Below, piece by piece: positions 3,828-16,824 of a stretch of DNA of 64,000 nt (positions within the stretch are counted from its first letter, which is position 1; each line of letters opens with the position of its first letter). Location: contig JAJRRT010000107.1 of NCBI GenBank assembly GCA_024279255.1, positions 179,281 through 243,280 of the forward strand, given 5' to 3'. Source of the stretch: Deltaproteobacteria bacterium. Its GTDB lineage: Bacteria; Desulfobacterota; Desulfuromonadia; Desulfuromonadales; Geopsychrobacteraceae. Position numbers and translations under genes: made by a program. The notes beneath the pieces were generated by a model. That model was not told the DNA's origin. It searched no databases and saw only the letters and a list, made by a program, of their open reading frames with translations.

Positions 3828-4919
3828 CTAGGAGGAACAGGAATCGCCGCAACCACAATCGGAAGAAGAGCCACTTCTTGCAGGCAGAAAATTCTTACCG
3901 ATCAGGATTAGCAAAGTCACCGCAGAAATCAGTGCGAAAGGCGAGGAGGTTGCATCCCCGGCCTGCTCAACCCAGCTGGTGATATCGATACCGGTCAAAG
4001 CATAGAGTCGGTTCAGCAGGTAACCGAACAATAACGAGCAGATCGCGATCGAAGCCAGATAGATACTGGTTGCCGCCCGGCCAAAATAGCGATAGACAAC
4101 CGTCAGGGTAGCCGCGTTAGTCGCTGGCCCGGCGAGTAGAAAAACCAGTGCGGCACCGGGGGAAAGTCCTTTAAGAATCAGGGCAGCAGCAATCGGAGTG
4201 GAAGCACTGGCACAGATATAGAGCGGAATGCCAACCGCCAGCATGATCAATAATGAAGTGAACTCACTACTCAGATACTGGAGAATAAAATCGTCCGGCA
4301 CCAGATAGGATATCACTCCGGCGATGAAGATACCGATCAACAGCCACTTGCCGATATCCCCCAGCAGATCACCAAAAGCGTAGCGGATCCCAGCTCGGAG
4401 CCGCTGCAATAACGGTAGCCTGACTTCCGGATGTTGCTCTTCAGCACAGCTTGAGTTGCTGCATCCGCAATTGCTTTTATCTGTGGGCGTTGATTCCCCG
4501 GACTCCTCCGGTAACAGATTAATCAGCAAGCCCGTTACCACCGCAGTTATAAACGCCGAGAGCGGTCGCACCAGAGTCATGATCGGATCGAGCAAAGCCC
4601 AGGTAATGGCAACAGAATCAACTCCAGTTTCGGGCACCGAAACCATAAAAGAGGCCGAAGCACCTTTACTCGCGCCCTGCTTGCGCAGACCGATCGCCGC
4701 CGGGATCACGCCACAGGAACAGAGTGGCAAGGGGATGCCGAAGAGTGACGCTTTAAAGACCGACCCACTGCTGCTGTTACCCAGATGTTTAGCCACCACT
4801 TCTTCGGGAACCAACGCCTTGAGCAAACCGGCGGCAAAAAATCCGAACAGGACATAGGGGGCTGATTCGAGCAGAATAGCCCAGCATTCCATCAGTATTC
4901 CGCTCAATATCTCCAGCAT
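3828..4919 (-). CDS. Permease of the SO_0444-type metal efflux family
   Basis: 363 aa; FGIPLPLCSCGVIPAAIGLRKQGASKGASASFMVSVPETGVDS and Cys-rich loop/tail (CGCSNSSC, CGCGDSC); downstream of an ArsR gene. Confidence 0.85.
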   Translation of the reverse strand: MLEILSGILMECWAILLESAPYVLFGFFAAGLLKALVPEEVVAKHLGNSSSGSVFKASLFGIPLPLCSCGVIPAAIGLRKQGASKGASASFMVSVPETGVDSVAITWALLDPIMTLVRPLSAFITAVVTGLLINLLPEESGESTPTDKSNCGCSNSSCAEEQHPEVRLPLLQRLRAGIRYAFGDLLGDIGKWLLIGIFIAGVISYLVPDDFILQYLSSEFTSLLIMLAVGIPLYICASASTPIAAALILKGLSPGAALVFLLAGPATNAATLTVVYRYFGRAATSIYLASIAICSLLFGYLLNRLYALTGIDITSWVEQAGDATSSPFALISAVTLLILIGKNFLPARSGSSSDCGCGDSCSS

Positions 4920-4943
4920 TATTCAACTTCTCCTTCAATCAAC

Positions 4944-5297
4944 TCAGCACTCTTCAACATGTCGCAAGCTAACTTCAACCAAGGTTTGAACATGATTGTC
5001 GTCCAGACTGTAATAAACGATCTTGCCCTCTTTGCGATAGCGCACAATGCCGCGCGCACGCAGCAACCGCAGCTGATGTGAAATCGCCGAGGAGGTCATT
5101 TCCAGCAGGGCAGCCAGGTCACAGACACAAAGTTCAGTCACCGCCAATGCTTGAAGAATCTTCACCCGGGTCGGATCACCAAGCAGCTTGAAGGTTTCCG
5201 CGACCTCAACCAGGATCATTTCATCCGGCATCTGTGCCTGGGCCTGCGCAATCCGCTGCTCATTGATAACCGTGACTTGACAGCTGTCCTGAACCAT
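4944..5297 (-). CDS. ArsR/SmtB-family metalloregulator
   Basis: 117 aa; winged HTH LLGDPTRVKILQALAVTELCVCDLAALLEMTSSAISHQLRLLRARGIVRYRKEGKIVYYSL with ELCVCDL metal-site motif. Confidence 0.93.
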   Translation of the reverse strand: MVQDSCQVTVINEQRIAQAQAQMPDEMILVEVAETFKLLGDPTRVKILQALAVTELCVCDLAALLEMTSSAISHQLRLLRARGIVRYRKEGKIVYYSLDDNHVQTLVEVSLRHVEEC

Positions 5298-5709: not shown

Positions 5710-6687
5710 CTATTCAGTCTGGCGATATTTCTGAATCCGATTGTGCCCAAAATCGACAACATACAGACTTCCGTCCGCGCCCACAGCGACATCTGTCGGC
5801 AGTTTGAGCCGCGTGAGGTCACTGCCTGTATCACCAAAGCTCAGTAGGAAAACGCCGTCTACAGTAAATTTCTGCACCCGGTTGTTATAGAAATCGGCAA
5901 CAAAGACATTCCCCCGCATGTCAGTCGCCACCCCGCTGGCCACCCTGAGCCAGCCTGGGCCGCGACCTGAAATATTCAGGGCAAAGGGCCCGCCCCATTT
6001 ACGCAGAAATTCTCCGGTAGAATCAAAAACCTGAATCCGGTCATTGTAGGCATCTGCAATAATCAGGTTACCGGCGGGGTCCAGGACAACATCGGTGGGA
6101 TAGTTGAATTCCCCGGCCCAGATTCCCTTTTCTCCGGTCGTACCGTACTGCCGGATAAAGCCACCATCAGCATCCAGAAACTGTACCCGGTGATTGTAAA
6201 AATCTGTCACGTAGATCCTGTCCGCTGCATCCACTGCGACCCCAGATGGCGCATTGAACTGGCCGGGGCCGGACCCTGAACGACCAATTGATCCCAGAGA
6301 CTCTCCGGTAAGAGAAAAAATCTGAATCCGGTCATTCTGATAATCGACGACATACAGCTTGCCATTTTTTACTGCCATGTGCATTGGCCGCCCCAGTTCG
6401 CCGGGCCCGTCTCCTACCTGTCCGAAAGAGAGTCGAAACTGACCGTTCAGGTCAAAAACCTGGATGCGATGATTCCCGGCGTCACTGATGAAAACCTGAT
6501 TGTCGGCGATGGCAATGCCGATCGGATTCTGGAATTCACCGGGTCCGCTGCCCGATTCCCCCCAGGCGAGTACAGCGCGATAGGGAGCTTCCTGCGGGTT
6601 GGGAAACCACTGGCGGATTGTCGGAACAGCCACGGCTGTGAGCAGCACGCTGGCGATGATTATCGGAACGGAACGCTTTCTCCACAC
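5710..6687 (-). CDS. NHL-repeat six-bladed beta-propeller, exported or membrane anchored
   Basis: 325 aa; N-terminal hydrophobic segment and six NHL repeats (e.g. GPGEFQNPIGIAIADNQVFISDAGNHRIQVFD). Confidence 0.9.
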   Translation of the reverse strand: MWRKRSVPIIIASVLLTAVAVPTIRQWFPNPQEAPYRAVLAWGESGSGPGEFQNPIGIAIADNQVFISDAGNHRIQVFDLNGQFRLSFGQVGDGPGELGRPMHMAVKNGKLYVVDYQNDRIQIFSLTGESLGSIGRSGSGPGQFNAPSGVAVDAADRIYVTDFYNHRVQFLDADGGFIRQYGTTGEKGIWAGEFNYPTDVVLDPAGNLIIADAYNDRIQVFDSTGEFLRKWGGPFALNISGRGPGWLRVASGVATDMRGNVFVADFYNNRVQKFTVDGVFLLSFGDTGSDLTRLKLPTDVAVGADGSLYVVDFGHNRIQKYRQTE

Positions 6688-6700
6688 AGGTCATTATCCC

Positions 6701-7633
6701 CTAAAAGTTGCGCCGGAAACTCAAGGTCAAGATAAAGTCGTTTTCCAGCGCATTCCCGTTAAGGTTCTGAATAAGCGGAATCTGCACCGCCGATTCAAGG
6801 ACTGTCCGTTTCGTCACCCATTGAATTCCCGGTGCCAGGTAGAGGGTTGCACCACCCGAATCGGGATCATCATGACCATCGACAGCATTATGACCCTGCC
6901 AGATCAGGTTGCTCTCCAGCACGCCATAAAGAAAGGCCGGAACTCCTGATCCCAGTTCGCGCGGCCATATTCGATGTTGATATGAGAGATCAAAACGGAC
7001 CAGATCACCAAACTCGAAGTTATTTGCTGCCGTATTAAACTTATAGGATATCGCCACATCAATCTGTCGCTCCAAAGTCTGCCAGGTGGATACGACCCCA
7101 AGCAGAGGATCCCAAGAGCCAGAGCCGAGTTGTAACGTCTGGGGCAGACGACCCAGAGAATCCTTCTCTCCATCCTCCCCGGTCGGAGTTTCAAGGCCAG
7201 CAAAGGGGGCGATGCGGAAGGTCTGCCCCGGTCGGTCCTGCTGAAAAACCGTGTAACGAGCCAGAAAGGTGGTATCACCAAACCCTGAAACCTCTCGTCT
7301 GCGCCTGCCCACAGCGGTATTGACCTCCAGTTCCTTGTTCAGGTAAGGGAGAATGCCGAACAGTGCCCATTTTTCGGTCAGCCCATAGACACCGACCAGC
7401 GGCACCATCGCTACCGTCAGATCGCGATCTTCGGGGCCGTCATCCGACGCAGTTAAATATTTGAATTGAGCGCGAAAGATCCCTTCTCCCTGGGCAACCG
7501 GCAGGGCGGTATTGAAGGTGATGGGGGCAGCAAAAGCTGGGAGGGCTAGAAACGTCAGTAGCAAAAGCGGAACCACTGGCTGCAAGCCTTGTTGGATGAA
7601 GCCGAACCATTTCGCTTGGCGAGTGCGTTTCAT
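6701..7633 (-). CDS. Outer-membrane beta-barrel protein
   Basis: 310 aa; signal peptide, alternating beta pattern, C-terminal FILTLSFRRNF ending in aromatic residue. Confidence 0.75.
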   Translation of the reverse strand: MKRTRQAKWFGFIQQGLQPVVPLLLLTFLALPAFAAPITFNTALPVAQGEGIFRAQFKYLTASDDGPEDRDLTVAMVPLVGVYGLTEKWALFGILPYLNKELEVNTAVGRRRREVSGFGDTTFLARYTVFQQDRPGQTFRIAPFAGLETPTGEDGEKDSLGRLPQTLQLGSGSWDPLLGVVSTWQTLERQIDVAISYKFNTAANNFEFGDLVRFDLSYQHRIWPRELGSGVPAFLYGVLESNLIWQGHNAVDGHDDPDSGGATLYLAPGIQWVTKRTVLESAVQIPLIQNLNGNALENDFILTLSFRRNF

Positions 7634-8142
7634 GGCATGATCTCCTTGACCGTTTCTAGCGTCAGCAGCGGCAGATTTGACTGGACCTCAGAGAGGGTTC
7701 CGGAAAAACTCGCCACGGTTCCAGAGATCACCAGATCCAGCAAATACGGCTTAAGCTGTGAAGACAGCTTGATCAATTGGAGAGTCAGAGTCGAGTTGCG
7801 CACGTCGAGCAACAGATTTTCATGGTCTTCCTTCACTGTTCCGACGACTGATATCCTCAGCAGTCCAGGCGTAAATCCGGCGGCCCTGACAGCCTTGCCG
7901 ATCTGAGCGATATCAATCGACTTACCATCTTCGGCAACCAGAGTGGCGGTGCCGTTTTTCATATCCACCACGACTTCGTCTGTGCCATTGACTGTTTTGA
8001 GTTTTTTCTCAACCCCAAAGGCGCAGAAGGGGCAGGACATTCCGTCTACGGAGATCACAGCTTGGGTGACTTCGGCTACCCCTGTCAGCGGCAACATAAC
8101 AAACAATGCCACCAAGAGAGTTTTAAGTGTTCGCCATCCCAT
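7630..8142 (-). CDS. Exported heavy-metal-associated (HMA/MerP-like) domain protein with C-terminal extension
   Basis: In-frame ATG at 8142 gives MGWRTLKTLLVALFVMLPLTGVAEVTQAVISVDGMSCPFCAFGVEKKLKTVNGTDEVVVDMKNGTATL: signal peptide plus GMSCPFC metal-binding motif. Confidence 0.88.
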   Translation of the reverse strand: MGWRTLKTLLVALFVMLPLTGVAEVTQAVISVDGMSCPFCAFGVEKKLKTVNGTDEVVVDMKNGTATLVAEDGKSIDIAQIGKAVRAAGFTPGLLRISVVGTVKEDHENLLLDVRNSTLTLQLIKLSSQLKPYLLDLVISGTVASFSGTLSEVQSNLPLLTLETVKEIMP

Positions 8143-8641
8143 TGTACCTTTCTCCTTTATCTCTCGGTTTAAGATTTGCCTGTTTCGAGGGCCAATATTC
8201 GGCGGCATCCTCAGGGTCCGATGAGTCTCGACCATCTTCCTCCATATCATCCAAGACCCCCAGAATCGTACATTCACTCAGTGGCCCCCGGCTCTGACAC
8301 GTCTCGGTCAGTTGTCGCAGGGCCTCTTCCATCCTCTCCAGATCCTTCTGTTTCTGGCGGATATCAGCTAGTCTGGCCTCTGCTCGCGCCTTGATCTCGC
8401 GACAACTCGTCCCTGGAGCTACCCGTAGATCGAGCAGCTCACCAATCTCCTGCAGGGAGAATCCGAGCTCCTTGGCGCGACGGATAAAGCGGACCTTTCG
8501 TACCGTTTCAGCCGAGTATTTCCGGAAGCCTGATTCGGGGTGGGGCGGCTGTTCAATCAGTCCACGACGTTGATAGAATTTGATTGTTTCTACCTGCACC
8601 CCGTACTTTCGGGCCAGCTGGCCAATGGTCAACCCATTCAT
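8123..8641 (-). CDS. MerR-family metal-responsive regulator
   Basis: 172 aa; MNGLTIGQLARKYGVQVETIKFYQRRGLIEQPPHPESGFRKYSAETVRKVRFI HTH plus Cys residues in dimerisation/metal region (TSCREIK, ETCQSRGPLSECTIL). Confidence 0.93.
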   Translation of the reverse strand: MNGLTIGQLARKYGVQVETIKFYQRRGLIEQPPHPESGFRKYSAETVRKVRFIRRAKELGFSLQEIGELLDLRVAPGTSCREIKARAEARLADIRQKQKDLERMEEALRQLTETCQSRGPLSECTILGVLDDMEEDGRDSSDPEDAAEYWPSKQANLKPRDKGERYNGMANT

Positions 8642-8665
8642 GGCGTTATCTCTTTGCTTATATAC

Positions 8666-8697
8666 ATAATAAAGGCGGTACCATAGTACCGAGTCAA
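8666..8697 (-). promoter_or_regulatory. MerR-type promoter/operator 1
   Basis: Minus strand TTGACT-CGGTACTATGGTACCGCCTT-TATTAT: dyad inside a 20-bp spacer. Confidence 0.8.
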
Positions 8698-8756: not shown

Positions 8757-8987
8757 ATGTACAGAAACGGGATGATGGGCGGGTACGGCTGGATCTTTAT
8801 GCTCATATTCTGGGCCGCGGCAATATTCGGAGCCATTTATCTGGTTTGATTGATCTCAGCCAAAGGGCATGCGGCTCCACCCGGTAGCTCCGAACAGACG
8901 CCGCTCGATATCCTCATAAATCACTATGCTCGAGGAGAGGTGGGCGAAGAGGAATACCACCGAATGAAAAAAGAGCTGGAGGAATAG
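8757..8987 (+). pseudogene. SHOCT-domain membrane protein interrupted by in-frame TGA
   Basis: ATG at 8757 reads MYRNGMMGGYGWIFMLIFWAAAIFGAIYLV-TGA(8847-8849)-LISAKGHAAPPGSSEQTPLDILINHYARGEVGEEEYHRMKKELEE-TAG; same frame continues into an intact SHOCT motif. Confidence 0.75.
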
Positions 8988-9576: not shown

Positions 9577-9801
9577 TCAACGCTCAGCGGCGCGCCATTG
9601 CAGGTAGGCCCTGATTGTCACCAGAATGAGTACTGCCAGCACCGGCAGGAGCAGAAAATCAAGGTAAGGGGTCACAAAGCTCAGACCCGCCAACCCCAAC
9701 CCGATCACCAGCAGCGGCGTGAAACAGCAAAGGGCACCCAGGCCGGTACCGACCAGGGCAGCGATAAAACGTTTGCGGAATCGGGCGCGTGCAACCATCA
9801 T
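9577..9801 (-). CDS. MerF/MerT-like mercuric ion transport protein
   Basis: 74 aa; GTGLGALCCFTPLLVIGLGLAGLSFVTPYLDFLLLPVLAVLILVTIRAY with vicinal Cys pair in TM1. Confidence 0.8.
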   Translation of the reverse strand: MMVARARFRKRFIAALVGTGLGALCCFTPLLVIGLGLAGLSFVTPYLDFLLLPVLAVLILVTIRAYLQWRAAER

Positions 9802-10004
9802 TGTGCCTCCAGCTGAATGGGAGGACAGGGGATATCGCCATAAGAACAGAACACACAGCAGTCACCCGCCTGCGGCTTGAGCAGCTGGCCGCAGCCGCTG
9901 CACTGATGGAAAAACTGACAGGCATCGGTCGGCATGATCAGTGTTTCGGCCTGACCACAATCTGGACAGGTCAAGGTCGATTCAGTCTGTATCCCTGCCC
10001 CCAT
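9798..10004 (-). CDS. GDCCVxC-motif putative zinc-binding protein
   Basis: 68 aa; LTCPDCGQAETLIMPTDACQFFHQCSGCGQLLKPQAGDCCVFCSYGDIPCPP. Confidence 0.85.
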   Translation of the reverse strand: MGAGIQTESTLTCPDCGQAETLIMPTDACQFFHQCSGCGQLLKPQAGDCCVFCSYGDIPCPPIQLEAQ

Positions 10005-10218: not shown

Positions 10219-10623
10219 TCAAATCTCCTCGGCCAGATTGGCCAGTATCGGGCAGGTCTCCGCACCCCTCTCACATTCGGTCACCAGCAGCCCAAGCGCA
10301 TCGGTCATCTTCTGCAATGCGGAAATCCGTTCGTTCAGGTCGTTGATCTTCCGCTGTGCCCTGTGACGTACATCTTCACAGCTGACCTGCTCTCCAAAAT
10401 AAAACCCCAAGAGCTCGCGAATTTCGCGCAGCGAGAAACCGATCTTTTTAGCCCGAACGATAAAATGCAACCGACGCAGCGTTTCCTCCGGATAACTTCG
10501 GAACCCGTCGATTGGCCTGAGCGGCTGCTCTATCAGCCCCTGACGCTCGTAAAAACGGATGGTTTCAATTCCAATTCCGACTACCGCGGCTACCTTGCCG
10601 ATGGTCTGTTCCGCCATGGACAC
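10219..10623 (-). CDS. MerR-family mercury-type regulator
   Basis: 134 aa; IGKVAAVVGIGIETIRFYERQGLIEQPLRPIDGFRSYPEETLRRLHFI plus SCEDVRHRA and TECERGAETCPIL cysteines at MerR-like positions. Confidence 0.93.
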   Translation of the reverse strand: MSMAEQTIGKVAAVVGIGIETIRFYERQGLIEQPLRPIDGFRSYPEETLRRLHFIVRAKKIGFSLREIRELLGFYFGEQVSCEDVRHRAQRKINDLNERISALQKMTDALGLLVTECERGAETCPILANLAEEI

Positions 10624-10636
10624 CTCCTATACCTGA

Positions 10637-10668
10637 AGTCTACCAACCGTACCATAGTACAGAGTCAA
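10637..10668 (-). promoter_or_regulatory. MerR-type promoter/operator 2
   Basis: Minus strand TTGACT-CTGTACTATGGTACGGTTGG-TAGACT; shares TTGACTCnGTACTATGGTAC with operator 1. Confidence 0.8.
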
Positions 10669-11192: not shown

Positions 11193-14100
11193 TCAGGCTG
11201 CCGCTTTTTCCGCACCCTTCTTCTTGAGCATATAGTAGAGGACCGGCACCGCCATCCGGCTGAAAAGGAGCGATGCAATCTCACCAAACATCAGGGCAAT
11301 TGCCAGCCCCTGAAAGATCGGGTCGGCAAGGATAACCGATGCACCAACCACCACCGCCATCGCGGTCAACAGCATCGGCCGAAAACGTACCGCGCCAGCT
11401 TCGACAACCGCTTCGCGCAAGGGTAATCCGTGGCTCATCCGCAGTTCGATGAAATCGATCAAAATGATCGAGTTACGAATGACAATCCCGGCACCGGCCA
11501 TAAACCCGATCATTGAGGTCGCGGTAAAAAAAGCTCCCAGCGCCCAGTGCGCAGGAAGCACACCGATCAGGGTAAAGGGGATCGCTGCCATCACCACCAG
11601 CGGGGTAAAGTAGTCCTTGAACCAGCCGACCATCAGTACGTAGATCAGGATCATCACCACCGCAAAGGCCAGCCCGAGATCGCGAAAGACCTCAAGGGTA
11701 ATATGCCACTCGCCGTCCCATTTGATGGATGGCTCCTCAGTATGAAACGGTTGGTTGAGATTGAAAACTTCGATCTCAGCCTCTTGACCACCGAAATCAG
11801 TCCCCTTGAGTTCTGCCAACCTGCGGTTGATATCAAGGATCGCATAGACCGGGCTTTCGACGCTCCCCGCCACATCCGCTGTAACATAGATCACCGGTTT
11901 GAGGTTTTTGCGATAAATCGACTGTTCAACCGATTGTTCCGTAACCTTCACCAATTCGCGTAGTGGAACCAGAGAGGCCTGTGGATCGGTGCTTGAGCGC
12001 AACGAAATATTCAGCAAACCATCGACCCGTGCCCGCAATCGTGCGGGCAGTTGCAGGACAATATCGATCTCTTCTTTGTCGGTCGGCTGGTGAAACAGAT
12101 CAATCGACAACCCCTGGGTCGCCATCTGCAAGGTACGAGCGATCTCGCCTTCACTGATGCCGTTGAGTGCCGCTTTTTCCTTGTCAACCTTCAGCACCAG
12201 ACGCTTGCGGTCAGCCTCGCGGTACCAGTCGATATCGACCACCCCTTCGGTAGCGTCGAAGATCTCCTTGACCTGCTGCGCCAATTTGACCCGCTGCGCA
12301 TCACTGGCTCCATATATTTCCGCGACTATAGTCTGCAGAACCGGCGGGCCGGGTGGGACCTCGGCGACCGCAACCGTCGCGCCATATTTTTCGGCGATCC
12401 GGGCGATTTCAGGCCTCATCCGTACGGCAATCGCATGGCTCTGCAAACTGCGTTGATCCTTGGGTTTCAAATTGACCTGGATATCGGCCATCGTCGGACC
12501 CTGACGCATAAAATAGTGTCGGACCAAACCGTTAAAATTATAGGGCGAAGCCACACCGGCATAAATCTGATAATCGGTGGTCGCGGTATCCTTGCTCACC
12601 ACCTCGGCCATCTCACGCGCCACCAGACTGGTCTGTTCCAGAGTTGAGCCCTCGGGCATATTGAGAATCACCTGAAACTCACTCTTATTGTCGAAGGGCA
12701 ACATCTTGACTTTGACCAGGCCGAAATAGACCATTGAGCAACTGGCCAGCAGCAGGATAATTATGCCGCTGAAAAAAACCGCGCGCCAGAAACCGCTGGC
12801 CAACAACGGATCCATGACCCGGTGGTAGAGCCGGGTGAAAAAGTCATCCGGCGCATGGTCATGATCCCTGGCGGAATCGCCTTCTTCGCCGTCCGCAGCT
12901 TGCTCTCTGCGCAGCAGCTTAACTGCAGCCCAGGGGGTCACCGTAAAAGCGATTATCATCGAAAAAATCATCGCCACCGACGACCCGATTGGAATCGGCC
13001 GCATATAGGGGCCCATCAATCCACCGACAAAGGCCATCGGCAGAATTGCGGCAATAACTGCCAGGGTTGCGAGGATCGTCGGATTTCCAACCTCGGCCAC
13101 TGCTTCAACAGCGATCGTTATCGACGACTTATTGTGCGCACCGGGCAAGCGCATGTGGCGCACGATATTTTCAACCACCACAATCGCGTCATCGACCAGA
13201 ATTCCGATCGAAAAAATCAGCGCAAACAGGGTGATCCGATTCAGGGTATAACCGTAGAGATAGAAGACCAACAGGGTCAGGGCCAGGGTTGAGGGGATGG
13301 CCAGCATGACGACCAGAGATTCTCGCCAGCCGAGGAAAAGGAGAATCAGCAGCGCAACACCAAAGACCGCAATCCCCATGTGAAATAGCAGCTCATTCGA
13401 CTTATCGGCTGCAGTTTCACCGTAATTTCGGGTGACGCTGACCTCGATATCTGCCGGGATGAGAGATCCTTTGAGTCTATCTATCTTGGCCAATACTTCG
13501 TCAACAACATTAATCGCATTGGCACCGGGCCGCTTGGCCACCGACAGGGTGACCGCAGCCTCTTCCTGCTGACCCGGCTCACCGAAGAAGACATAATTAT
13601 CCGCTTCCTGCGGACCGTCGAGAATCCGGGCGACATCGGCAAGATAGACCGGGTGGCCACCATAAACACCAACCACGATTCGACCGATCTCCTCGGCACT
13701 ACTGAGGAAACTGCCAGTCTGTAGCAGAATTTGCTGATTGAGGGATTCGAGCTTGCCGGTATAACTCTGGCTGTTGGCCTGCTTAAGCACCGGGATCAAC
13801 TGGTTGGGAGTCAGGTTCCGTGCTGCCAGCAGCAGCGGGTCGAATTCGATCCGCACCTGGCGTTTGGTGCCACCGATCAGGGTCGTTTCGGCGACATTGA
13901 AAATATTCTTGATTTCATCATCAACCTGAGCTGCCAGCCGCCGCAGGATATAATGATCATATTTGTCGCTGTGAAAGGTCAGGGCCAGAATCGGCACATC
14001 GTCAATGGTATGAGGCTTGATTAGTGGCGGTGAAACACCGAGCGGTATCCGGTCAAAATTGGTCGCAAGTTTCTGGTTAAGTCGGACAATCGAGGTTTCA

Positions 14101-14435
14101 AGATCCTCGCCGACATAAAAACGGACCACCAGCAGGCTCTGTCCCGCCATCGAGGTCGAATAGACATATTCAACCCCCGGCAGTTCGTAGAGCAACTTTT
14201 CCATCGGAATCGAAAGCCGCTGTTCGACTTCGGCGGGCGTAGCACCGGCCATACTGACCATAACATCGATCATCGGCACCTTGATCTGCGGCTCTTCTTC
14301 GCGTGGCAGCATGGTGATTGCCATGAATCCAAGCAGCAGCGAGACGATAATCGCCAGCGGTGTCAACCGCGAATTGACGAATGCGGCGGCCAGCCGTCCG
14401 GCAAATCCAGGATTATCCATGATCGACTTTTTCAT
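11193..14435 (-). CDS. RND efflux pump inner-membrane permease
   Basis: 1080 aa AcrB-like ORF with TM4 region ILVDDAIVVVENIVRHM and paired TM blocks; 4-bp overlap with upstream MFP gene. Confidence 0.96.
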   Translation of the reverse strand: MKKSIMDNPGFAGRLAAAFVNSRLTPLAIIVSLLLGFMAITMLPREEEPQIKVPMIDVMVSMAGATPAEVEQRLSIPMEKLLYELPGVEYVYSTSMAGQSLLVVRFYVGEDLETSIVRLNQKLATNFDRIPLGVSPPLIKPHTIDDVPILALTFHSDKYDHYILRRLAAQVDDEIKNIFNVAETTLIGGTKRQVRIEFDPLLLAARNLTPNQLIPVLKQANSQSYTGKLESLNQQILLQTGSFLSSAEEIGRIVVGVYGGHPVYLADVARILDGPQEADNYVFFGEPGQQEEAAVTLSVAKRPGANAINVVDEVLAKIDRLKGSLIPADIEVSVTRNYGETAADKSNELLFHMGIAVFGVALLILLFLGWRESLVVMLAIPSTLALTLLVFYLYGYTLNRITLFALIFSIGILVDDAIVVVENIVRHMRLPGAHNKSSITIAVEAVAEVGNPTILATLAVIAAILPMAFVGGLMGPYMRPIPIGSSVAMIFSMIIAFTVTPWAAVKLLRREQAADGEEGDSARDHDHAPDDFFTRLYHRVMDPLLASGFWRAVFFSGIIILLLASCSMVYFGLVKVKMLPFDNKSEFQVILNMPEGSTLEQTSLVAREMAEVVSKDTATTDYQIYAGVASPYNFNGLVRHYFMRQGPTMADIQVNLKPKDQRSLQSHAIAVRMRPEIARIAEKYGATVAVAEVPPGPPVLQTIVAEIYGASDAQRVKLAQQVKEIFDATEGVVDIDWYREADRKRLVLKVDKEKAALNGISEGEIARTLQMATQGLSIDLFHQPTDKEEIDIVLQLPARLRARVDGLLNISLRSSTDPQASLVPLRELVKVTEQSVEQSIYRKNLKPVIYVTADVAGSVESPVYAILDINRRLAELKGTDFGGQEAEIEVFNLNQPFHTEEPSIKWDGEWHITLEVFRDLGLAFAVVMILIYVLMVGWFKDYFTPLVVMAAIPFTLIGVLPAHWALGAFFTATSMIGFMAGAGIVIRNSIILIDFIELRMSHGLPLREAVVEAGAVRFRPMLLTAMAVVVGASVILADPIFQGLAIALMFGEIASLLFSRMAVPVLYYMLKKKGAEKAAA

Positions 14436-15481
14436 TGGGTCAGACCTGCCTCGACAACTTCAAGCGGCTGACCGTCGAGTAGCAGACCCTCGGTCGCGAT
14501 AACGATCTGATCTCCCGCCCGTAATCCGGAGAGAATCTCAACCCGATCAGCATAGCTTGAGCCACTGCGTACCAGGCGCATGCGCGCCACCCCCTGGTCG
14601 GCAACAAAAACCTGTTCCATCTGCCCATTCTGATGCAAAGCCGCCTTTGGGATCAACAAGGTCTGTGCCCCTTTATCGGCCAACGATACCCGAGCAAACT
14701 GACCACTGCGCAGGAGCGGGTTATCAGACAGCGTCAGCTTGACCTGGGTGCTGCGTGAAACCGGATCGACGGTCGGTGAAATTTCGCTGATCTGTGCTTC
14801 GGTAGACAAACCAACCGCGGGCACGTTTACCAGAAGAAGACTATCGAGGCGTAGCCCCTGCGCCAAAGCCTCTGGAATCTGTACCAGAACCTCGAGGGCC
14901 GCGGAGTTCTCCAATTTGAGCAGCGCGCTGCCGGGAGAGGCCAGATCTCCGACTTCGACCAGTTTATGGGTAATCGTGGCAGCGAAGGGCGCCCGGATCC
15001 GAGTATAGTCGTGCATCGCTTTTGCTTCGCGGTAGGCTGCCTCGCTGATCTGCACCAGCTCTGTCAGGGTTTTGACCTTCTCCCTGGTTGAGGCGTTGAC
15101 CTGCTGCAGCTTGGTTTCACGCTCAAGATTGCGCCTGGCTTGCGAGAGCTGAGTTTCGGCCTGGCGGACCCTGGCGCTGATTTCAGCGGCACGAACCCGC
15201 ACCAGCAGATCGCCCTTTTTAACCCTTGAACCGACAGCCACCGGCATCTCGACCACCTGACCGCTCACACGGGCCGAAATCAGGGCCTGCTCGGTCGCCT
15301 GAAGCGTTCCGGCAACTTCAACCTGAAAAGGCACTTCACTCAGCGATAGAGTTTCAACCTGCACCCGTACTTGCGGCAGACTTGAAATAACAGTCTTTCC
15401 AGCGGGCTCACTGCAACCAGCAACTCCGAGCAAAAGAAGAAGAGACCAGAGAATAAATATTTTTTGTTTCGGCAGTATCAT
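14432..15481 (-). CDS. RND periplasmic adaptor (membrane fusion protein)
   Basis: 349 aa; lipoprotein-like LLGVAGCSEP signal; VSGQVVEMPVAVGSRVKKGDLLVRV lipoyl hairpin, MFP beta-barrel. Confidence 0.95.
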   Translation of the reverse strand: MILPKQKIFILWSLLLLLGVAGCSEPAGKTVISSLPQVRVQVETLSLSEVPFQVEVAGTLQATEQALISARVSGQVVEMPVAVGSRVKKGDLLVRVRAAEISARVRQAETQLSQARRNLERETKLQQVNASTREKVKTLTELVQISEAAYREAKAMHDYTRIRAPFAATITHKLVEVGDLASPGSALLKLENSAALEVLVQIPEALAQGLRLDSLLLVNVPAVGLSTEAQISEISPTVDPVSRSTQVKLTLSDNPLLRSGQFARVSLADKGAQTLLIPKAALHQNGQMEQVFVADQGVARMRLVRSGSSYADRVEILSGLRAGDQIVIATEGLLLDGQPLEVVEAGLTQ

Positions 15482-16824
15482 TGCGTCTCCACTGAAGAGG
15501 TCAAATTTGAAGAAAATTGTGGTAGCCCGACCGCGCGCCGTAAATCAGCAATCGCTATTTGCACGGCAGAGGTCGCAACGGCATACCGCACGCGAGCATC
15601 GGTAAGCCGCGATTCAATATCAATCAGATCGGAGGCCAGAATCACCCCTTCCTTAAACCGGGCACGACTCAACTGTTCGCTCTCAAGTGCCTGCTCAACC
15701 ATCTTCTTAGTGACCAGTTTCCGTTGTTGAGCCTGACTCAACGCCAACTCAGCCTGTTTGAGCTCAAGGTTAAGCGCCAGCTCCAGTTTCCTCAGCTCAG
15801 CCCGTAAAGTTCCGAGTCGAGCCTCGGCCTGAGAAATATCTGCTGCGGAACTATGACCATCAAAAAGCTTAAAGTTCAGGTTGAGACCAGCGGTCCAGGA
15901 ATCTCCATTGCCATCCAAGATCGTCCCATGATCAAACTGATAAGAAGCAAACCCGTCAACCGTTGGTCGTCTGCTCCCCCGCGCACCACTCAACTTTGCT
16001 TCAGCGACCCGTAATGCTGCTCGCATCCGCCGTAATTCTGGGCGTTGCGCAGGACTGCGGATCTCCGGCGGGACAGGACTCGACTGTGAGATGGTTACAA
16101 GCTTGACATCACCAGCGGATAAACCGAGCAGTGTCAAAAAGATCTGCTTTGAAAGTTCGAGGTTATGTGAAGCCTGAATTTGACTTTCGAGGATTCGCGA
16201 TTCCTGAACTTCGAGATTCAAAAGATCGATCTTGAGCAGATCCCCCGCAGCGTAGCGCGCATGCGCCACGTCCAGCGCAGAGCGGATCGCATCCAGCGCT
16301 ACCTGCTGAGCTTGATCGACAGTTTCTGCCTCAACAATCCGTTGAAAGCTGCGGAAAGCTTCAAAGCCTAATTGTAGTTGAACCGATTCCCGTTCTGCGC
16401 TGGAAAGATCAACCCCGGCTCCGGCAGCATCTCTACGGGCTGTATCCTGACCACCATTGTAGAAGCGATATTGTGCTCCGATACTTAGATTTAAATTATC
16501 GGTGCGCCCCGGGTCGTTGAAATCGATCCCGGGAGTGAACTGACCCTGATTGAGGATATTCCCAAAAGAGTGGATTGGATTATTGGTCTGGCTATAGCTG
16601 CCACTCAAACCAAGCTGCGGGTAAAAACTTGCTGATGATTTGCTCAGCAAGGCCTCTGCTTCGAGCATCCGTTGGCTGGCCACCAGACTATCCGGATTGT
16701 TCCCCAGCACAAACTCGACAGCCTTGCGCGCCGTCCATTCTTCGGGAACCGGCATCTCGGCAGACTGGCTCCATCCTACGGGGAAAACAGCTAACAGCAG
16801 AAATATTAGTAATAGTCGTTTCAT
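15478..16824 (-). CDS. TolC-family outer-membrane efflux protein
   Basis: 448 aa; signal peptide, duplicated helical OEP pattern; 4-bp overlap with MFP gene. Confidence 0.93.
   Translation of the reverse strand: MKRLLLIFLLLAVFPVGWSQSAEMPVPEEWTARKAVEFVLGNNPDSLVASQRMLEAEALLSKSSASFYPQLGLSGSYSQTNNPIHSFGNILNQGQFTPGIDFNDPGRTDNLNLSIGAQYRFYNGGQDTARRDAAGAGVDLSSAERESVQLQLGFEAFRSFQRIVEAETVDQAQQVALDAIRSALDVAHARYAAGDLLKIDLLNLEVQESRILESQIQASHNLELSKQIFLTLLGLSAGDVKLVTISQSSPVPPEIRSPAQRPELRRMRAALRVAEAKLSGARGSRRPTVDGFASYQFDHGTILDGNGDSWTAGLNLNFKLFDGHSSAADISQAEARLGTLRAELRKLELALNLELKQAELALSQAQQRKLVTKKMVEQALESEQLSRARFKEGVILASDLIDIESRLTDARVRYAVATSAVQIAIADLRRAVGLPQFSSNLTSSVETQ

What the first reader, a model, noticed from the sequence alone, without database searches (positions are those of the whole stretch)
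5710..8697. MerR-led operon of HMA protein, outer-membrane barrel and six-bladed NHL propeller, with no MerA/MerT/ATPase
One MerR-type promoter drives a MerR regulator, an exported GMSCPFC HMA protein with an extra C-terminal region, a beta-barrel outer-membrane protein and an NHL propeller, apparently co-directional and overlapping or tightly spaced. All three effectors carry export signals or a hydrophobic N-terminus. This suggests a cell-envelope metal capture or export module that does not match the canonical mer or cop operons I know.
Basis: partly seen in the sequence, partly recalled or inferred. Interest (0 to 1): 0.6.

Follow-up and report, generated by a model that had tools for sequence, protein, structure and literature searches.

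The report
Mercury-controlled envelope metal-handling operon
A bacterium carries a four-gene operon, switched by what looks like a genuine mercury sensor, that makes an exported metal-binding protein, an outer-membrane barrel and a propeller protein; the same set recurs in distant bacteria beside mercury- or copper-type genes, and I found no description of it as part of known mercury operons.

Summary
Window 5710-8697 (minus strand) holds a perfect mer-type operator, a MerR with all three Hg(II)-binding cysteines, an exported HMA protein (GMSCPFC plus a ~75-residue C-terminal extension), a PF13557 outer-membrane barrel and a six-repeat NHL propeller, overlapping or tightly spaced. Two changes to the reading. 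First, it is not isolated from mer: 1.4 kb upstream a second MerR-led operon with the same operator encodes GDCCVxC, MerF and a DsrE-like protein; these two sites are the only perfect mer operators in the genome. Second, the synteny is not unique: of 26 loci with a close relative of the barrel (three phyla), 25 have a same-strand CP[FY]C HMA gene and 13 have NHL downstream; 15 distant barrels have 3 and 0. Copies in the window's phylum and Verrucomicrobia sit under three-Cys MerRs, gammaproteobacterial ones under a MerR lacking the first Cys, so the effectors look like a soft-metal envelope module wired here to Hg(II). The genome has hgcAB but no recognisable MerA. Most likely role: periplasmic Hg(II) capture and hand-off at the outer membrane. 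Transport direction and the propeller's role are inferred, not shown.

The parts
8670..8697 (-). mer-type operator/promoter of the operon: TTGACT -35, dyad GGTAC-TATG-GTACC, long (20 bp, or 19) spacer to TATTAT/TTATTA
   Evidence: 0 mismatches, expected 0.01 in window; only this and the 10641 site match the 22-mer with 0 mismatches in the whole genome, the remaining three hits all have 2; counterpart kept in G002 directly 5' of HMA
8123..8641 (-). MerR regulator (172 aa, with C-terminal tail), Hg(II)-type three-cysteine set C80, C115, C124
   Evidence: TIGR02051 140 bits, just under the 150.85 cut-off; aligns with Tn501 MerR 5crl C82/C117/C126 and Bacillus MerR 4ua1; ligands per PMC5027573
7630..8142 (-). 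exported HMA protein, 170 aa: signal peptide, HMA domain with GMSCPFCAFG, C-terminal extension of about 75 aa predicted as five strands plus a helix
   Evidence: PF00403 39.2 bits; MerP/CopZ fold by Foldseek for the HMA part; extension pLDDT 33-53, fold not assignable
6701..7633 (-). outer-membrane beta-barrel protein, 310 aa, PF13557 (Phenol_MetA_deg), signal peptide, C-terminal Phe; no cysteines in the mature part
   Evidence: PF13557 38.2 bits; about 12 strands predicted but very low confidence, pLDDT 33; family alignment
5710..6687 (-). NHL six-repeat propeller, 325 aa, N-terminal membrane anchor, GTG start; no cysteines
   Evidence: PF01436 154.6 bits; relatives with TM anchor, or with a lipobox in G378 (LSGC) and G639 (TASC)
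10641..10668 (-). second mer-type operator, in front of the twin operon
   Evidence: 1 mismatch to the long pattern, 0 to the 22-mer
10219..10623 (-). MerR2, three-cysteine type, regulator of the twin operon
   Evidence: TIGR02051 118.9 bits; C/C/C at ligand positions
9798..10004 (-). GDCCVxC-domain cysteine-rich small protein
   Evidence: NF041374 100.6 bits, cut-off 40
9577..9801 (-). MerF mercury transporter
   Evidence: NF033565 64.9 bits, cut-off 50; PF11431 41.9 bits
9043..9552 (-). exported DsrE-like protein; relative also directly upstream of HMA-OMP-NHL in G639
   Evidence: PF02635 18.9 bits, under its cut-off of 22.7; 39-41% identity to G639 gene

Best explanation
This is one half of a two-operon Hg(II) regulon. 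MerR sits on a long-spacer mer promoter and switches the operon on when Hg(II) fills its three cysteines (inferred from ligand residues and operator; strong). The exported HMA protein takes Hg(II), or another soft metal, on its CPFC dithiol in the periplasm, as MerP does (inferred from fold and motif). It passes the metal to or from the PF13557 barrel, which gives a dedicated outer-membrane route, most likely outward or to a surface sink, so that metal is kept from the inner membrane in a cell that lacks MerA. The NHL propeller, tethered to the periplasmic face of a membrane and lacking thiols, is a scaffold or docking partner for HMA and barrel rather than a metal binder. The twin operon (GDCCVxC, MerF, DsrE-like) handles the thiol and inner-membrane side. 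The regulon assignment is well supported (about 0.85); the hand-off chain, its direction and the propeller role are inferences.
For: Three Hg ligands conserved in MerR. Perfect operator at this operon and its twin, and no others of that quality in the genome. Operator kept in G002 right before HMA although the merR gene is absent there, and near-consensus operators at the promoters of OMP-HMA-NHL in G425 and of the MerR-led run in G364. MerF, MerT-like, thioredoxin-like and, in G639, MerA genes in the same gene runs. Tight HMA-OMP linkage: 25 of 26 close barrels against 3 of 15 distant ones; NHL 13 of 26 against 0 of 15. HMA signature G[LMI][ASTV]CP[FY]C in the HMA partners of the close barrels. 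OMP and NHL carry no near-invariant Cys or His, so only the HMA protein can be the thiol carrier. Neighbours elsewhere are resistance genes: P-type ATPase, RND, CcdA.
Against: No experiment. MerR scores just under NCBIfam's MerR cut-off (140 against 150.85). In the gammaproteobacterial loci the linked MerR lacks the first Hg cysteine (R/K), so the effectors are not Hg-specific as a family. MerF is normally an importer, which argues for an inward arm. The barrel model is too poor (pLDDT 33) to show a pore. The NHL gene is missing in half of the loci, so it is dispensable.
Confidence: 0.5

Rival explanations
1. Inward relay: the barrel admits Hg(II)-thiol complexes, HMA acts as MerP and MerF takes Hg(II) into the cytoplasm, where something other than MerA disposes of it (sulfide, MerA-like oxidoreductases, or HgcAB methylation followed by MeHg loss).
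For: MerF in the twin operon; MerT-like gene directly next to HMA in many gammaproteobacterial loci; MerA in the same run in G639; the genome has hgcA (NVWCAAGKGTF) and hgcB.
Against: No MerA with the C-terminal Cys pair in the genome; hgcA motif occurs in 55 of 118 relatives, the module in 2 of 118, so no sign of a link. Outer-membrane entry of Hg needs no dedicated barrel in known mer systems (own knowledge).
Confidence: 0.25
2. General copper/silver-type envelope module that has been placed under a mercury-type MerR here; its real cargo is Cu(I)/Ag(I) and the Hg control is incidental.
For: Gammaproteobacterial copies sit under MerRs with only the two CueR-type cysteines (R/K at the third position) and beside P-type ATPases, CcdA and RND genes. 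CopZ and MerP models score alike on the HMA domain, all below cut-off.
Against: In the window, G364, G378 and the verrucomicrobial MAG the linked regulators have all three Hg cysteines, as do MerRs in G013 and G425, with mer operators at several; MerF and GDCCVxC partners in window and G002.
Confidence: 0.2
3. Decaying mer island: a mer operon that lost merA, with HMA-OMP-NHL as hitch-hikers without metal function.
For: The related genome G013 has MerR-MerT-Trx followed by a truncated HMA whose first Cys is lost (GMSRPFC) and no barrel; G002 lacks both merR genes at the locus.
Against: All four window genes are intact, the operator is perfect, G002 orthologues are 69-75% identical with open frames; recurrent linkage in unrelated lineages.
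Confidence: 0.05

Closest known systems
mer operon (MerR-MerT/F-MerP, MerA)
   Same: MerR with three Hg cysteines, mer operator with a long spacer, exported HMA protein, MerF in the twin operon
   Different: No MerA in the assembled genome; HMA protein is not a MerP by the NCBIfam cut-off (37.5 against 92.55 bits) and has a C-terminal extension and CPFC motif; barrel and NHL propeller are not parts of described mer operons in the papers searched
CueR/Cop-type copper modules with CopZ
   Same: HMA chaperone fold, metal-inducible MerR-family control; gammaproteobacterial copies have two-cysteine MerRs
   Different: The window's MerR has the third cysteine absent from CueR; no P-type ATPase in the operon
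PF13557 Phenol_MetA_deg outer-membrane family ('transporter')
   Same: Barrel is a member (38.2 bits, cut-off 22)
   Different: Belongs to a distinct, well-supported group (100/99) tied to CP[FY]C HMA genes
NHL propellers, e.g. ScyF-like (NF035926)
   Same: NHL repeat protein; 207.7 bits to ScyF
   Different: Well below the ScyF cut-off of 350; membrane-anchored partner of a barrel
HgcAB mercury methylation system
   Same: Same genome, same metal
   Different: On another contig, no mer operator found there, widespread in relatives that lack the module

Membership tests
Hg(II)-responsive MerR | Three Hg(II)-binding cysteines (C82, C117, C126 of Tn501 MerR) | tested here: met
   C80, C115, C124 align (ligands from PMC5027573)
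Hg(II)-responsive MerR | NCBIfam equivalog TIGR02051 score over 150.85 bits | tested here: not met
   140 bits for MerR1, 118.9 for MerR2; best-scoring family for both. No MerR of the genome passes
Hg(II)-responsive MerR | Induction by Hg(II) | not testable with these tools
   needs expression data
mer operon | mer operator with dyad GTAC-N4-GTAC and 19-20 bp promoter spacer | tested here: met
   0 mismatches, expected 0.01; spacing 20 bp to TATTAT or 19 to TTATTA
mer operon | Inner-membrane Hg transporter (MerT/C/E/F) | tested here: met
   MerF at 9577-9801, but in the twin operon
mer operon | MerP (TIGR02052 cut-off 92.55) | tested here: not met
   HMA protein scores 37.5 bits; same fold
mer operon | Mercuric reductase MerA with C-terminal Cys pair | tested here: not met
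   17 flavoprotein hits, none over cut-off, none of the eight read has the C-terminal CC; assembly 91% complete
CueR-type copper operon | Two-cysteine sensor lacking the dimerisation-helix Cys | tested here: not met
   Window MerR has the third Cys; gammaproteobacterial copies lack it
PF13557 outer-membrane family | Pfam gathering score | tested here: met
   38.2 against 22 bits
PF13557 outer-membrane family | Barrel fold | tested here: inconclusive
   model pLDDT 33

The most novel reading that the evidence does not exclude
A dedicated, mercury-switched outer-membrane route: a barrel, thiol chaperone and tethered propeller that move Hg(II) (or Hg-thiolates or methylmercury) across the outer membrane, working in a predicted mercury methylator that has no MerA. 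To my knowledge it would be the first outer-membrane component of a mercury system.
Probability: 0.3. Interest if true: 0.75.

Novelty: new variant of a known kind. Interest (0 to 1): 0.55.

Why it matters
Described mer systems explain inner-membrane transport and reduction but have no outer-membrane part. How Hg(II) and methylmercury cross the outer membrane of anaerobic methylators is open. A mercury-controlled operon with a barrel and a thiol chaperone in an hgcAB-bearing genome gives concrete genes to test, and the CP[FY]C-HMA plus barrel pair defines a soft-metal module in several phyla now annotated only as 'transporter' and 'heavy-metal-associated domain'.

Tried and rejected
Single-protein scan of genome contigs with the barrel gave only two loci; the wider picture came from profile searches. 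Plasmid tblastn with the HMA protein mostly found P-type ATPase HMA domains; useful hits were Marinobacter pSMR5 and an Acidibrevibacterium plasmid. Link to hgcAB: rejected as specific, since the hgcA motif is in 55 of 118 relatives. HMA C-terminal extension as an OB-fold: the strand pattern fits but confidence is too low and Foldseek matched only the HMA part well. Barrel structure: model unusable, not searched further. MerB: no hit, but the control was silent too, so absence is not shown. RNA families: none. Paper searches for NHL repeat with mercury, MerR, HMA or copper resistance found no paper. Sequences from the genome search were not sent to structure prediction because its rule names other sources.

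Full report
What is there. On the minus strand, 8697 to 5710, lie a mer-type operator and four genes: MerR (8641-8123), exported HMA protein (8142-7630), outer-membrane barrel of PF13557 (7633-6701) and an NHL propeller with six repeats (6687-5710). The genes overlap or are 13 nt apart. The operator TTGACTCGGTACTATGGTACCG is perfect, with 0.01 matches of the pattern (up to 3 mismatches) expected in the window.

The regulator. MerR1 aligns with Tn501 MerR (5crl) and Bacillus MerR (4ua1) and keeps the three Hg(II) ligands (C80, C115, C124; ligands as in PMC5027573). It scores 140 bits against the NCBIfam MerR model, under the 150.85 cut-off but above every other family. The promoter has a 20 bp spacer to TATTAT (19 bp to TTATTA); the other promoters compared here fit 20 bp too. 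PMC5027573 gives 19 bp for Gram-negative and 20 bp for Gram-positive mer promoters.

The twin operon. At 10668-9043 a second operator precedes MerR2 (also three-Cys), a GDCCVxC protein, MerF and an exported DsrE-like protein. Genome-wide the 22-mer has only these two sites with 0 mismatches; the other three hits have 2 mismatches, and such hits are at the level of the reversed-pattern control. So the operon is not free of mer genes, only of MerA and an ATPase.

Relatives. In the sister genome G002 the order is GDCCVxC-MerF-HMA-OMP-NHL-ArsR, and the operator is kept directly before HMA although the merR gene between them is absent. G378 has MerR-Trx-HMA-OMP-NHL, with a similar C-terminal extension on the HMA protein. 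G364 has MerR-Trx-MerT-MerP-(Cys-rich protein)-HMA-OMP-NHL. G639 has a MerA ending LSCCAE, then a cytochrome, SHOCT, DsrE, HMA, OMP and an NHL gene that is split over two frames. G425 has OMP-HMA-NHL with an operator of its own. A verrucomicrobial MAG has MerR-HMA-OMP and a gammaproteobacterial MAG has ATPase-OMP-HMA-MerT-HMA-OMP-NHL-Trx-MerR. Close barrels (E <= 1e-50) occur in 14 of 369 genomes of that MAG's class and, at E <= 1e-110, in 6 of 395 genomes of the window's phylum sample, but in only 2 of 277 of its class at high similarity: a patchy pattern that suggests horizontal transfer.

Strength of the linkage. Of 26 loci with a close barrel (47% identity or more to a reference), 25 have a same-strand HMA gene within 4.5 kb and 13 have NHL downstream; of 15 distant barrels 3 and 0. 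The references came from the same set, so neighbours of distant barrels are somewhat harder to detect. The tree puts the close barrels in one group together with two unlinked rows and one long branch (100/99); the window lies in a supported group of five that all have NHL (95/97).

Two sensor types. Regulators next to the module in the window, G364, G378 and the verrucomicrobial MAG, and MerRs in G013 and elsewhere in G425, have Cys at all three positions. Those next to the gammaproteobacterial copies have R or K at the first, as in sensors without the third thiol. The effector set is therefore best seen as a soft-metal module used under more than one sensor; here it is under a mercury-type sensor.

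Mechanism. Shown: gene order, operator, ligand residues, linkage. Inferred: the CPFC HMA protein carries metal in the periplasm; the barrel provides outer-membrane passage; the propeller, anchored by a TM segment or, in G378 and G639, by a lipobox, is a scaffold. The barrel and the propeller have no near-invariant Cys or His, so neither is likely to bind Hg(II) by itself. Outward movement is favoured because the operon is predicted to be toxin-induced and the assembled genome lacks MerA; the inward relay remains a real rival because MerF is an importer. AlphaFold gave a good HMA domain, a weak extension and an unusable barrel.

Mercury methylation. The genome has hgcA and hgcB on another contig. 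The hgcA motif occurs in 55 of 118 relatives, the module in 2, so there is no sign of a specific link; it only makes the host a useful test organism.

Novelty. The papers searched hold no description of an NHL protein or a barrel in a mercury or copper operon, within an open-access library only. PMC8261052 lists periplasmic MerP and inner-membrane MerT, C, E, F and G as the transport parts of mer operons, none at the outer membrane. I rate it a new variant of a known kind: mercury-type control and chaperone, with an outer-membrane and propeller pair not known from mer.

Noticed in passing
8757-8987 (+): Short SHOCT-domain gene with an in-frame TGA at codon 31 between the two mer operons: selenocysteine, read-through or a pseudogene is open. 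SHOCT genes also lie beside the module in G364, G639 and G779.
   Followed up: partly
3828-5297 (-): ArsR plus SO_0444-type Cu/Zn efflux permease (434.9 bits) downstream of the NHL gene; the ArsR neighbour is kept in G002.
   Followed up: partly
11193-16824 (-): TolC-MFP-RND efflux operon upstream of the twin operon; other RND genes also lie near several gammaproteobacterial copies.
   Followed up: no
L045 568-2160: hgcB and hgcA in the same genome; HgcA has an N-terminal stretch with CCPP repeats.
   Followed up: partly
L079 6462-6614: G013 carries MerR-MerT-Trx and a truncated HMA whose first metal Cys is lost: a decayed copy without barrel.
   Followed up: partly
L133, L134, L137, L140, L043: One gammaproteobacterial MAG (G655) holds five copies of the barrel with HMA genes, some beside mer genes.
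   Followed up: no
L070 7800-9200: In G331 barrel and HMA are separated by about 1 kb of repeated sequence (DATERVPP-like when translated).
   Followed up: no
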